Assembly: GCF_022811685.1 (NCBI RefSeq)
Contig: NZ_CP094532.1
Coordinates: 2,770,501-2,834,500, forward strand
Length of the DNA: 64,000 nucleotides
DNA from: Chryseobacterium suipulveris
Lineage (GTDB): Bacteria; Bacteroidota; Bacteroidia; Flavobacteriales; Weeksellaceae
Reading direction: 5' to 3'
This document shows, piece by piece, positions 32,830 to 43,834 of the stretch. Every line of letters begins with the position of its first letter. Positions within the stretch are counted from its first letter, which is position 1. Both the position numbers and the translations under genes were made by a program. The notes beneath the pieces were generated by a model. It was not told where the DNA came from. It ran no database searches and worked only from the letters and a program-made list of their open reading frames with translations.

Positions 32830-32988
32830 GAGCCTGTTTAAATTTTACCAAATAAACCTGAATTTGTTTTCCCCAACCCTAAAAGGAGCAAATTCAGGTT
32901 TATTTGGAAGGAAATTTTCCTCCCTTTAGGAACGGGGTAAAGAAAATTTCCGATATAATTTTTTTTTGAATAAAATTTAAACAAGCTC
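32830..32988 (+). mobile_element. 159-bp MITE, copy 1
   Basis: Terminal inverted repeats of 18 bases (left GAGCCTGTTTAAATTTTA, right its complement with one mismatch) are flanked by direct repeats TAA at 32827-32829 and 32989-32991. The interior holds a perfect 19-base-pair hairpin (arms CCAAATAAACCTGAATTTG and complement) and a second hairpin with GGAAATTTTC arms. There is no coding capacity. The same element in inverted orientation, also 159 bp, is at 39026-39184. The TAA duplication would suit an IS5-type (TNA) transposase acting in trans; none is in the window. Confidence 0.9.
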
Positions 32989-37377: not shown

Positions 37378-37782
37378 TTGAAAGTCGTTTTAGATACCAA
37401 TGTTTTATTGATTGCCGTTTCACGAAAATCTAGATTTCATAAAATTTTCAGTTCTTTAGTTGACGGCGAATATACAATCTGCATTACCGATGACATTCTT
37501 TTCGAGTATGAAGAAATATTGAAAAAATATTTGGATGGTGTAGTTGCTGAATCCATTATGGAGATTTTTGAAAATGCGCAAAACGTAATTTGGATCAATA
37601 AATATTTTAAATGGAATCTGATTACCGAAGATCCGGACGACAATAAATTTGTGGATTGTGCTATCGCTTGAGGAGCACAATTTTTAGTAAGTACCGATAA
37701 GCATTTCAATATTTTAAAGAAAATAAAATTTCCGAAAGTGGATGTCGTAAAAGCCGAAGATTTCTTAAAAACATTAAAGTAA
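37378..37782 (+). pseudogene. PIN-domain toxin (VapC-like) interrupted by TGA
   Basis: Starts at TTG 37378 (VVLDTNVLLIAVS). All PIN acidic positions are readable: DTNV, then TEDPDDNKFVDCAIA, and after the stop VSTDKHF. The TGA at 37669-37671 falls between AIA and GAQFLV; the frame continues unbroken to the TAA at 37780-37782, giving a 135-aa family-length protein. The simplest event is GGA to TGA at a conserved Gly. The truncated 97-aa form lacks the last acidic residue and should be inactive. PIN toxins are Mg-dependent RNases. Confidence 0.87.
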
Positions 37783-38333: not shown

Positions 38334-38975
38334 ATGAAGAAAATCGCATTTGTAACATTCATCATTTTATTAATAGACCAAGTTTCAAAATTCTACATCA
38401 AAACCAACTTTCAGTTAGGCGAAAGCGTGGATGTTTTCCCAGGTTTCAAGCTGACTTTCGTCGAGAATCCGGGAATGGCGTATGGTTTTCATTTCGGGGG
38501 CTTGATCGGGAAGTATTTTCTGGTTATCGTGCGGATCTTTCTCATCGGAGGAATGGTCTATCTCTTTAGAAAATGGCTCAAAGAAGGCATTCACGGCAAT
38601 TACCTGCTGATTCCGATGGCGATGATTTTTGCAGGTGCAATCGGAAACCTCATCGACGGAATGTTTTACGGACTGATTTTCGACAGTGGAACCGTTTACG
38701 ACGAAAGTATCGGCAGATGGATCGATTACGGCGGTGTTTCCAAAGTGGTTCCTTTTGGCGAAGGATACTCGCATTTTATGAAGGGCTGCGTTGTCGATAT
38801 GCTGCATTTCCCACTTGTTGACTGGAATGTTCCGGAGAACTTTCCCCTTATCGGCGGAAAACATATTGAGTTCTTCAAATATATTTTTAATGTGGCAGAT
38901 TCGGCGATCACAGTTGGTGCCGCTTTGCTTTTGATTTTCAGAAAGAAAGCGTTTCCGAATGGGTTTGATTTCTAG
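38334..38975 (+). CDS. lspA: Lipoprotein signal peptidase (signal peptidase II)
   Basis: A 213-aa, four-helix membrane protease. ENPGMAYGF and GNLIDGMFYG (first catalytic Asp) and FNVADSAITVG (second Asp) are the LspA signatures. The insertion between them (residues ~120-175) is typical of Bacteroidetes LspA. It removes signal peptides from prolipoproteins such as those encoded at 15934, 19065, 45290 and 53237. The start follows a TCTCCAA repeat run. Confidence 0.95.
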   Translation: MKKIAFVTFIILLIDQVSKFYIKTNFQLGESVDVFPGFKLTFVENPGMAYGFHFGGLIGKYFLVIVRIFLIGGMVYLFRKWLKEGIHGNYLLIPMAMIFAGAIGNLIDGMFYGLIFDSGTVYDESIGRWIDYGGVSKVVPFGEGYSHFMKGCVVDMLHFPLVDWNVPENFPLIGGKHIEFFKYIFNVADSAITVGAALLLIFRKKAFPNGFDF

Positions 38976-38980
38976 AATAG

Positions 38981-39011
38981 ATGTCAGATTTCAGACACCA
39001 GATTTCAGACT
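38981..39011. repeat. Short dispersed repeat GATGTCAGATTTCAGAC, copy 3
   Basis: GATGTCAGATTTCAGACACC followed by AGATTTCAGAC, just after the lspA stop and directly before the original start codon of the ElyC-like gene (39013). Same core as at 22219 and 37055. Confidence 0.45.
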
Positions 39012-39012
39012 G

Positions 39013-39816
39013 ATGAATATTCTAAGAGCCTGTTTAAATTTTATTCAAAAAAAAATTATATCGGAAATTTTCTTTACCCCGTCCCTAAAGGGAGGAAAAT
39101 TTCCTTCCAAATAAACCTGAATTTGCTCCTTTTAGGGTTGGGGAAAACAAATTCAGGTTTATTTGGTAAAATTTAAACAGGCTCTAAGAAAAATATTTCT
39201 GTTATTCCTGATACTTTCTGTATTGGGAATTGTTTTTGTAACAGGTGCGAATTATCTTGTTGAAAATAGTACAGCGGATTATGTAACTGCGGATATTTCC
39301 AAACTGCCCAACGAAAAAGTCGGTTTGGTTTTGGGAACAAGTGAAAAAACCGATAGAGGTTACACCAATTATTATTTCAAATACCGTATCGACGCCGCAG
39401 AACAGCTTTACAAATCAGGAAAAGTGAAGTACCTGATTGTAAGTGGTTACAACTCCGTACATCATTACAACGAACCCGAAGACATGATGAATGCACTGAT
39501 TGCAAGAGGAATTCCGAAAGATCATATTTTTCAGTATTTCGCAGGTTTCCGGACTCTGGATTCGGTGATTCGGGCAGAGAAAATCTTTGGTCAGAAATCG
39601 TTCATCATTATTTCTCAAAAATTTCATAATCAAAGAGCAGTTTATCTTGCCAGAAAAAATAATATTGACGCATACGGTTTCAACGCGAAAGATGTCAACA
39701 ACAATTCGAGACTAAAAATCAAAATCCGTGAATATTTTGCAAGAGCGAAGGTTTTCGTGGATTTTGCTCTGGGTATAAAACCCAAGTTTGGTGGTGAGAA
39801 AGTAATGATTCCTTAA
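39013..39816 (+). pseudogene. ElyC/SanA/YdcF-family membrane protein, 5' end split by a MITE
   Basis: The downstream frame encodes one membrane helix (IFLLFLILSVLGIVFVTGANYL) and a DUF218/YdcF domain (VGLVLGTSEKTDRGYTNYYF, YLIVSGYN, SQKFHNQRAVYLAR); relatives act in envelope barrier function. Deleting the MITE plus one TAA joins ATG AAT ATT C with TA AGA AAA ATA, giving MNILRKIFLLF. With the MITE, translation from 39013 ends at a TAA inside the element after 34 codons. The only in-frame start left is TTG 39163, inside the MITE terminal repeat, which would give MVKFKQALRKIFLL and a full-length protein. It may be partly functional through that start. Confidence 0.85.
39026..39184 (-). mobile_element. 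159-bp MITE, copy 2, inverted relative to copy 1
   Basis: Same 18-base terminal repeats, 159-bp length and internal hairpins as at 32830-32988 but in the opposite orientation. TAA direct repeats are at 39023-39025 and 39185-39187. Element plus one duplication is 162 bp, a multiple of three. It lies in codon 4 of the ElyC-like gene. Confidence 0.92.
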
Positions 39817-39859
39817 AAAAACTAAACTTCAGCAAATTGTCTGAAGTTTTTCTTTTCGC

Positions 39860-39867
39860 TATTTTTG
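39860..39867 (+). promoter_or_regulatory. -7 box of trpS
   Basis: TATTTTTG, an exact TAnnTTTG match, 37 bases before the trpS ATG. Confidence 0.55.
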
Positions 39868-39904
39868 CAAATCTAAACCTCAATCTTTACTTCATCCTCA
39901 AAGT

Positions 39905-40873
39905 ATGTCACGAATCCTCACAGGAATACAGGCAACGGGAACGCCGCATTTGGGAAACCTTTTGGGAGCGATTATTCCCGCTATCGAACTTTCTAAAAAA
40001 TCTGAAAACGAATCGTTTCTTTTCATCGCCAATATGCATTCTTTAACACAAATTAAAAATGCTGAAGAACTGAAACTGAACACCTATCAGATTGCCGCGG
40101 CTTGGCTCGCAATGGGATTGGACACCGAGAAAACCTATTTTTACAGACAGAGCGATATTCCTGAAGTTTGTGAATTGTCGTGGTATTTGTCTTGTTTTTT
40201 TCCGTATTCGAGGTTGCAGTTGGCGCACTCTTTTAAAGATAAAGCCGACCGCTTGGAAGATGTGAATGCCGGGCTTTTTACCTATCCGGTTTTGATGGCG
40301 GCAGATATTTTACTTTACGATGCAGAAGTTGTTCCTGTAGGAAAAGACCAATTACAGCACTTGGAAATGGCGCGAGATATGGGTGCGAGATTTAATAATC
40401 AAATGGGTGAAGTTTTTGTTTTGCCGGGAGCGGAATTACAGAAAGACACGATGTATGTTCCCGGAACTGACGGACAGAAAATGTCGAAATCCAGAGGAAA
40501 TATCATCAATATCTTCTTGCCCGAAAAGCAATTGAAAAAACAGATTATGGGAATCGAAACCGATTCGAAAACGCTGGAAGAGCCAAAAGATCCGTCAACA
40601 GACAAGGTTTTTGCAATCTACGAACTCATGGCCACTCCTGAACAGACTGAAATCTTGAGACAAAAATATCTCGCAGGAAATTTCGGTTACGGACACGCGA
40701 AAACAGAATTGTTGAATTTAATTTTAGAAAAATTCAAAACCGAAAGAGAAAAATTCGACTACTACATGAACAACTTGCCAGAACTGGATGCCAAACTTTT
40801 TGAGGGCGCAGAAAAAACCAGAAAAGTTGCGGTTGCAACTTTGAAAAGAGTAAGGGAAAGTTTGGGAATGTAA
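39905..40873 (+). CDS. trpS: Tryptophanyl-tRNA synthetase
   Basis: A 322-aa class Ic synthetase. The HIGH motif is TGTPHLGN (residues 11-18) and KMSKS is KMSKSRGN. YPVLMAADILLYDAEVVPVGKDQ is the conserved central region that contacts Trp and the dimer partner. Length and order match bacterial TrpRS. It attaches Trp to tRNA-Trp. It is a single-gene transcript, with its own -7 box and a terminator hairpin after it. Confidence 0.97.
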   Translation: MSRILTGIQATGTPHLGNLLGAIIPAIELSKKSENESFLFIANMHSLTQIKNAEELKLNTYQIAAAWLAMGLDTEKTYFYRQSDIPEVCELSWYLSCFFPYSRLQLAHSFKDKADRLEDVNAGLFTYPVLMAADILLYDAEVVPVGKDQLQHLEMARDMGARFNNQMGEVFVLPGAELQKDTMYVPGTDGQKMSKSRGNIINIFLPEKQLKKQIMGIETDSKTLEEPKDPSTDKVFAIYELMATPEQTEILRQKYLAGNFGYGHAKTELLNLILEKFKTEREKFDYYMNNLPELDAKLFEGAEKTRKVAVATLKRVRESLGM

Positions 40874-43166: not shown

Positions 43167-43421
43167 GTGGATGCGAAACTGACTTTAAAGCTAAAAGAAT
43201 CTGTGATCGAGCGCGCTAAGAGATATGCTTCCGACAGGAAAACGAGTTTGTCACGACTGATTGAGAATTACTTGGACTCGTTGACAAGTGACTCGACTCC
43301 GGATTTCGAAATTTCCCCCTTTGTGAAAAGTATCGCGACTGGAAAAAGTGTTCCGCTTGATGTGGAAAAAAAGAACAATAATGACGACTACATTCAGTAT
43401 CAGGATCAAAAACACCGATAA
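43167..43421 (+). CDS. DUF6364 antitoxin (ribbon-helix-helix)
   Basis: An 84-aa protein from a GTG start. KLTLKLKESVIERAKRYASDRKTSLSRLIENYLDSL is a short strand plus two helices, the RHH DNA-binding fold; the C-terminal half should wrap the toxin. The stop overlaps the PIN start by one base (TAATG). It would neutralise the PIN RNase and repress the operon through the palindrome upstream. Confidence 0.85.
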   Translation: MDAKLTLKLKESVIERAKRYASDRKTSLSRLIENYLDSLTSDSTPDFEISPFVKSIATGKSVPLDVEKKNNNDDYIQYQDQKHR

Positions 43422-43834
43422 TGCAAAAGCTATTTTTAGACACCAACATCGTGGTAGATTTTCTCGGTGAACGCGAAGAAGTTTATCGATCTGCAGCCAG
43501 AGTGATGACTTTGGCGGATCAAAAGAAAATCAAAATCTTCACCACCTCCAATACGATTTCCACGAGTTATTATTTGCTGTCGAAATATGAAAGTCCGAAA
43601 GCTGCGCTGGAAAAAATCAGAAAATTCAAGGTGCTTTGCTCGGTTTCTGCAATGAGCGACGAAGTGATTGATAAGGCGATTGCCTCCGATTTCAAAGATG
43701 TTGAAGATGCGATCCAGTATTTTAGCGCAATTGCAACCCATTGCGACCTGATTATCACGAGGAACGGCAAGGATTTCAAAAACGCGTTGATTCCCGTGAT
43801 GAATGCCGAAAGTTTTCTGCAAACTTTGAAATAG
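43421..43834 (+). CDS. PIN-domain RNase toxin (VapC family)
   Basis: A 137-aa PIN protein with the acidic set Asp in FLDTNIVVDFL, Glu/Asp in DFKDVEDAIQY and Asp in DLIITRNGKDF. PIN toxins cleave tRNA or rRNA. One-base overlap with the antitoxin gene and intact catalytic residues indicate a complete, probably active module, unlike the other two toxin genes in the window. Confidence 0.88.
   Translation: MQKLFLDTNIVVDFLGEREEVYRSAARVMTLADQKKIKIFTTSNTISTSYYLLSKYESPKAALEKIRKFKVLCSVSAMSDEVIDKAIASDFKDVEDAIQYFSAIATHCDLIITRNGKDFKNALIPVMNAESFLQTLK

What the first reader, a model, noticed from the sequence alone, without database searches (positions are those of the whole stretch)
39013..39816. A MITE split an ElyC/SanA-like gene at codon 4 and now may supply its start codon
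Seen directly: TAA duplications flank the 159-bp element (39026-39184). Removing element plus one TAA restores ATG AAT ATT CTA AGA AAA, in frame with the remaining membrane helix and YdcF-like domain. In the present sequence translation from the ATG stops inside the element, while a TTG in the terminal repeat (39163) is in frame with the rest. So an inserted element may have become the translation start of a nearly intact gene. Since MITE plus duplication is 162 bp, only its internal stop blocks read-through.
Basis: seen in the sequence. Interest (0 to 1): 0.75.

Follow-up and report, generated by a model that had tools for sequence, protein, structure and literature searches.

The report
Recent MITE insertion disrupts SanA-like gene
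A small, recently moved piece of repetitive DNA has landed just after the start of a cell-envelope gene in a Chryseobacterium-type bacterium; the substitute start codon it carries is probably locked in an RNA hairpin, so the gene is most likely switched off, which is ordinary.

Summary
A 159-bp element (39026-39184) with matching TAA duplications sits just after the start of a SanA/DUF218-type gene downstream of lspA. Eight of 35 same-genus relatives carry the orthologue uninterrupted, lspA upstream in all eight, with a homologous start. At least 40 places in this genome match the element. It is an IS5-type MITE: a relative has a 908-bp IS with the same ends; this genome keeps only a transposase remnant.

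TTG 39163 is in frame but lies in a perfect 19-bp stem; predicted openness around it is 0.009 against at least 0.216 at 44 control starts. The old ATG opens a 33-codon ORF that meets three in-frame stops, not one. The copy has no private substitution among the six youngest, so an open frame downstream proves nothing. The protein lacks two aspartates present in 45 of 45 homologues, yet keeps the SanA T/H/E triad; whole-branch omega is not raised and control genes give no significant excess.

Best reading: recent insertional inactivation of a gene often absent in the genus. Coupled reinitiation through the hairpin is not excluded.

The parts
38334..38975 (+). lspA (signal peptidase II), upstream neighbour; probably transcribed into the interrupted gene (inferred from the 37-nt gap)
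   Evidence: PF01252 E 1e-32; NF011369 above its cut-off; upstream of the orthologue in 8 of 8 relatives that have it
39013..39114 (+). ORF of 33 codons now opened by the gene's old ATG, mostly element-coded; ends at the first of three in-frame stops
39023..39025 (+). Target-site duplication TAA, left copy
39026..39184 (+). 159-bp MITE with GAGCCTGTTTAAATTT terminal inverted repeats; no transposase frame
   Evidence: ends shared with a 908-bp IS5-family element in a relative
39107..39125 (+). Left arm of the perfect 19-bp inner inverted repeat; contains the stop 39112-39114
   Evidence: I2; fold
39148..39166 (+). Right arm of the inner inverted repeat; contains the TTG 39163-39165
   Evidence: I2; fold; openness
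39163..39165 (+). TTG, candidate start codon inside the terminal repeat
39185..39187 (+). Target-site duplication TAA, right copy
39163..39816 (+). Open frame holding the rest of the SanA/DUF218-type gene (217 aa plus stop)
   Evidence: PF02698; SanA model below its cut-off; 39% identical to E. coli K-12 SanA over 211 aligned positions
39448..39450 (+). TAC (Tyr, residue 96 counted from TTG) where 45 of 45 homologues have Asp
39535..39537 (+). TAT (Tyr, residue 125) where 45 of 45 homologues have Asp
39905..40873 (+). Downstream neighbour with the class I tRNA synthetase (W and Y) domain, called trpS here; behind a terminator-like hairpin 39824-39849
   Evidence: PF00579; the name trpS within that domain family is inferred

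Best explanation
A non-autonomous IS5-type MITE recently transposed into the TAA that spans codons 4-5 of a sanA-like gene behind lspA. Ribosomes that start at the old ATG now make a 33-residue, mostly element-coded peptide and stop. The rest of the gene has only a UUG as its next start, and that UUG is base-paired in the element's own hairpin, so little or no SanA-like protein is made. The gene is dispensable in this genus (27 of 35 relatives lack the orthologue, though all 35 keep a DUF218 match of some kind), so the insertion could persist; the open frame downstream is simply too young to have decayed. Shown: insertion, duplication, frame, stops, family, predicted hairpin, recency, loss of two conserved Asp. 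Inferred: co-transcription with lspA, low expression, tolerance of the loss.
For: Structure of the insertion and frame. Uninterrupted orthologues with a homologous start in 8 of 35 relatives; all 35 have at least one DUF218 match and this genome has a second, 39% identical one. RNA of 39000-39230: -88.4 kcal/mol, z -9.86, 0 of 200 shuffles as stable. Openness of the 31 nt at TTG 0.009 against a minimum of 0.216 in 44 control starts. No promoter-like match on the + strand of 38800-40000 and no Bacteroidetes-type match in 38900-39300 (consensus recalled; 0.48 expected, so weak). No private substitution in the copy against the five next youngest copies. At neutral divergence of 0.6% or 1.9% the frame would still be free of nonsense changes with probability 0.84 or 0.58. 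5 of 61 highly conserved columns are changed, including Asp to Tyr at two positions that are Asp in 45 of 45; the copy ranks 2nd of 38 in its family and 3rd of 46 overall for such changes.
Against: The SanA triad T/H/E, needed for function in E. coli (passages of PMC12176290), is intact. Omega on the whole branch is 0.078 against 0.084 background, p 0.86, but synonymous sites are saturated there and some other branches gave unstable estimates (koreense 19 on a near-zero branch). Against lspA, dksA and ileS the excess of changes at otherwise invariant columns is not significant (9 of 24 against 26 of 90, p 0.46; radical changes 6 of 10 against 11 of 15, p 0.67). At the codon alone, 1 of 44 control starts is as closed. 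No transcript or protein data.
Confidence: 0.72

Rival explanations
1. Coupled reinitiation: ribosomes translating the 33-codon ORF stop within the left arm of the hairpin, hold it open, and a fraction reinitiate at TTG 39163, 48 nt downstream, giving low-level SanA-like protein with five element-coded residues in place of the old N-terminus.
For: The stop 39112-39114 lies in the left arm (39107-39125) and the TTG in the right arm (39148-39166). With 39013-39114 or 39013-39127 held unpaired, openness around the TTG rises from 0.009 to 0.32 or 0.56, the range of normal starts. The old ATG and its upstream context are untouched; predicted openness there is 0.42. The TTG product keeps basic residues before the hydrophobic stretch (seen in sequence).
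Against: 48 nt after a stop is long for reinitiation and UUG is weak (general knowledge). The TTG codon itself stays mostly paired even then (0.11-0.18). The arrangement follows from palindromic ends and gives no sign of selection; of 60 ends in the 30 copies examined only this one leads into a frame of 100 or more codons.
Confidence: 0.14
2. One reading: the TTG of the terminal repeat is used directly as the start of a functional gene.
For: In frame, first ATG/GTG/TTG after the last stop; frame open for 217 codons; A at -12 and -13; triad intact.
Against: Buried in a perfect 19-bp stem, less open than all 44 control starts over 31 nt; U at 0 and -3; two Asp lost. An insertion with its TIR-borne TTG in frame has about a 1 in 6 chance (three phases, two orientations; my estimate), so the frame match needs no selection.
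Confidence: 0.09
3. The gene was already decaying before the element arrived, and the insertion is a late event in a pseudogene.
For: The copy has no private substitution whereas the protein has changed at 5 of 61 highly conserved columns, so most of those changes probably predate the insertion.
Against: No stop or frameshift in the rest of the frame; excess of such changes not significant against control genes; whole-branch omega low. It could also be altered function.
Confidence: 0.3
4. Translation of an N-terminally shortened protein from a start inside the gene (TTG 39223 or later).
For: In-frame TTG 39223, 39325, 39331, GTG 39424 and ATG 39484 exist.
Against: TTG 39223 lies within the hydrophobic stretch and its codon openness is 0.007; later starts remove the membrane anchor and part of the domain.
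Confidence: 0.03

Closest known systems
MITEs derived from IS5-family insertion sequences
   Same: Short, no transposase, terminal inverted repeats, 3-bp TAA/TTA duplications, many copies, ends shared with an autonomous IS5-family element
   Different: No intact parental transposase found in this genome; only a 63-of-256-aa remnant
MITEs that inactivate genes (Correia elements, MITEs in other genera; review PMC10969869, passages seen)
   Same: Insertion into a coding sequence that interrupts it
   Different: Here the insertion is at codon 4-5, so nearly the whole frame survives behind an element-borne TTG
Rickettsia palindromic elements (RPE), in-frame palindromic insertions in genes (review PMC10969869, passages seen)
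   Same: Palindromic element of about 150 bp in a protein gene; insert plus duplication here is a multiple of three
   Different: RPEs are read through in frame; this element carries three stops in the gene's frame
SanA (DUF218) of E. coli
   Same: 39% identity, T/H/E triad conserved
   Different: Below the NCBIfam SanA cut-off (172 against 363 bits); Asp90 and Asp119 of SanA are Tyr here

Membership tests
MITE of IS5 type | Short element without transposase | tested here: met
   159 bp; stops in all six frames
MITE of IS5 type | Terminal inverted repeats | tested here: met
   16 bp identical at both ends; 33-nt arms 85% complementary
MITE of IS5 type | Short target duplication (TNA for one IS5 subgroup; recalled) | tested here: met
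   TAA/TAA here; identical 3-mers at 4 of the 6 youngest copies (L001-L004), TTA against TAA at L005 and L006
MITE of IS5 type | Many copies in the genome | tested here: met
   40 places, 6 at 96% or more
MITE of IS5 type | Ends shared with an autonomous IS | tested here: met
   Relative G003: L116 1038-1945, same ends, transposase NF033580 at 190.9 bits (cut-off 110) and PF01609; its right end is a contig end, so its duplication could not be checked
MITE of IS5 type | Cognate transposase in the same genome | tested here: not met
   Only residues 194-256 of 256, 84% identical, plus a distant 33% match; six other PF01609 places lack these ends. Not a requirement for being a MITE, but for moving now
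SanA (DUF218) family | DUF218 domain | tested here: met
   PF02698, 73.4 bits, cut-off 27.6
SanA (DUF218) family | Thr/His/Glu triad needed in E. coli SanA | tested here: met
   T131, H155, E190 align with T125, H149, E182 (triad from passages of PMC12176290)
SanA (DUF218) family | NCBIfam SanA equivalog cut-off | tested here: not met
   172.2 bits, cut-off 363
SanA (DUF218) family | Two Asp conserved in the orthologues and in SanA | tested here: not met
   Tyr at 96 and 125; Asp in 45 of 45 homologues examined
SanA (DUF218) family | Single N-terminal membrane anchor | not tested
   One hydrophobic stretch seen by eye; no predictor run
   One hydrophobic stretch by eye; NCBIfam names SanA only

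The most novel reading that the evidence does not exclude
The palindromic MITE has turned a constitutive start into a translation-coupled one: translation of the element-coded 33-codon ORF melts the hairpin and exposes the element's own UUG, so the insert supplies both start codon and switch for a slightly altered SanA-like protein.
Probability: 0.13. Interest if true: 0.55.

Novelty: new member of a known kind. Interest (0 to 1): 0.22.

Why it matters
It is a clean, recent case of a MITE caught at the start of a gene, with uninterrupted orthologues, recognisable parent IS and relatives for comparison. It shows why an in-frame TTG in a terminal repeat must not be annotated as a start without looking at RNA structure: the palindrome that makes the element mobile also hides the codon. 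Among 30 copies examined it is the only one that overlaps the 5' end of a long frame.

Tried and rejected
Rfam search of 38400-40300: no family. Branch test of selection: uninformative because synonymous sites are saturated. Decay measured against lspA, dksA and ileS: not significant, so decay is stated as suggestive only. Solved-structure search: one match at E 0.91, an aldo-keto-like fragment alignment, not meaningful. Promoter inside the element: none found. Element as systematic start donor: among 60 ends of 30 copies only this one leads into a frame of 100 or more codons, next longest 64 codons beyond the element; for the 24 less similar copies the match limits, not the true ends, were used. 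Literature: eight searches, seen as listings; no title or abstract start listed there describes a MITE supplying a start codon, and 'start codon' does not occur in the main text of the MITE review PMC10969869. That is not proof that none is in print.

Full report
What is there. The element at 39026-39184 is 159 bp, with GAGCCTGTTTAAATTT at both ends and TAA on either side. It lies 13 bp behind the A of ATG 39013, in a gene whose remainder encodes a DUF218 domain, 39% identical to E. coli K-12 SanA. Upstream is lspA, 37 nt from the ATG; downstream, behind a terminator-like hairpin, is a class I tRNA synthetase gene.

Relatives. Of 60 genomes searched, 45 have a match. Of the 35 in the same genus all have at least one DUF218 match, but only eight have the orthologue proper (56-77% identity), each behind lspA and each uninterrupted, with an ATG directly before the corresponding residues. 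The other 27 lack the orthologue at this level of similarity, so the gene is often absent. It is nevertheless kept in 15 genomes of about 600 kb of one other family.

The element. 40 places in the genome match, 30 of which were fetched with flanks. Six are at least 96% identical. In these, the present copy has no substitution of its own; its one distinguishing base (C at TIR position 5) is shared with L006. Duplications are identical at four of these six. 26 of 30 copies are not overlapped by a frame of 100 or more codons; three overlap the 3' end of one by 9-26 bp; only this copy overlaps a 5' end. A relative (G003) has a 908-bp IS with the same ends and an IS5-family transposase. In this genome only the last 63 of 256 residues of that transposase remain, behind a matching end. 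Other DDE transposases exist but no copy of these ends was found beside them.

Is the TTG a start? It is in frame, and it is the first ATG/GTG/TTG after the third in-frame stop. But it is in the right arm (39148-39166) of a perfect 19-bp inner repeat. The region folds to -88.4 kcal/mol against a shuffle mean of -44.7 (z -9.86, 0 of 200). Mean openness of the 31 nt around the TTG is 0.009; 44 control starts in the window (longest non-overlapping ATG frames of 150 codons or more, not curated genes) have minimum 0.216 and median 0.48; at the three codon bases alone one control is as closed. Work on F. johnsoniae, seen in passages only (PMC6847099), ties weak initiation to structure and to U at 0 and -3, both present here; A at -12 and -13 is favourable. 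No promoter-like match was found on the + strand or of the Bacteroidetes type (absence weak, 0.48 expected).

An alternative worth a test. The old ATG and its surroundings are untouched, so ribosomes can load there (openness 0.42). They would stop at 39112-39114, inside the left arm of the same inner repeat. If 39013-39114 or 39013-39127 is held open, openness around the TTG rises to 0.32 or 0.56, though the codon itself stays mostly paired (0.11-0.18). Coupled reinitiation is thus physically possible, over 48 nt and at a UUG. This is the boldest reading left open.

Does the frame look used? With no private substitution in 159 bp, the insertion is at most about 1.9% old (rule of three; my estimate). 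At 0.6% or 1.9% the 627 downstream bases would still be free of nonsense changes with probability 0.84 or 0.58 (frameshifts not counted). So an intact frame says nothing. In the protein, Tyr replaces Asp at residues 96 and 125, Asp in 45 of 45 homologues; 5 of 61 columns conserved in at least 95% are changed. Counted leave-one-out, the copy is 2nd of 38 in its family (6 of 71; L157 has 8 of 71) and 3rd of 46 overall (5 of 61). The two Asp correspond to D90 and D119 of SanA; the second is also Asp in this genome's own paralogue, the first Glu. Against this: the T/H/E triad is intact; whole-branch omega is 0.078 against 0.084 (p 0.86); and the excess at otherwise invariant columns is not significant against lspA, dksA and ileS (9 of 24 against 26 of 90, p 0.46; radical 6 of 10 against 11 of 15, p 0.67). 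Because the insertion is so young, most of these changes probably came before it. I take decay as suggestive, not shown.

Comparison with what is known. MITEs that interrupt genes and palindromic elements read in frame are both described (review PMC10969869, passages; Coxiella QMITEs, PMC5896051, passages, where no element was seen to affect the 5' end of genes with known function). This is a further case of the first kind, set apart only by its position at codon 4-5. SanA acts on peptidoglycan synthesis in E. coli (PMC12176290, passages), and DUF218 genes are dispensable there under the conditions tested (PMC3879167, passages), which fits tolerance of the insertion.

Verdict. Observation confirmed; start-codon rescue unlikely; recent insertional inactivation most likely (0.72). 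Alternatives overlap in part: prior decay (0.3) can be true together with the main reading.

Noticed in passing
window 32830-32988: A second young copy of the same MITE (99% identical, opposite orientation) lies about 100 bp upstream of the likely ATG of ileS.
   Followed up: partly
L006 (G000:C1:534954-535113): One young copy sits directly behind another GAGCCTGTTTA end, as if inserted into an older copy's terminal repeat.
   Followed up: no
window 38985-39010; L032 1435-1479: The spacer between lspA and the sanA-like gene holds a 12-nt repeat twice in the window and a 7-nt repeat 6.4 times in C. koreense; it may be a repeat-prone spot before the gene.
   Followed up: partly
genomes of f16/g28: 15 genomes of about 600 kb in one genus of the order keep a homologue of this gene (E 1e-41 to 1e-43), which suggests that it matters in reduced genomes although 27 of 35 same-genus relatives lack the orthologue.
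   Followed up: no
window 37378-37671 and 43167-43834: Two PIN_3-domain frames: one of 97 aa behind a 93-aa frame without a Pfam match, one of 137 aa directly behind a DUF6364 frame; they look like toxin-antitoxin type pairs.
   Followed up: partly
L115 1469-1695 (G000:C1:2665274 onward): Remnant of the parental IS: an intact end followed by the last 63 residues of the transposase.
   Followed up: partly
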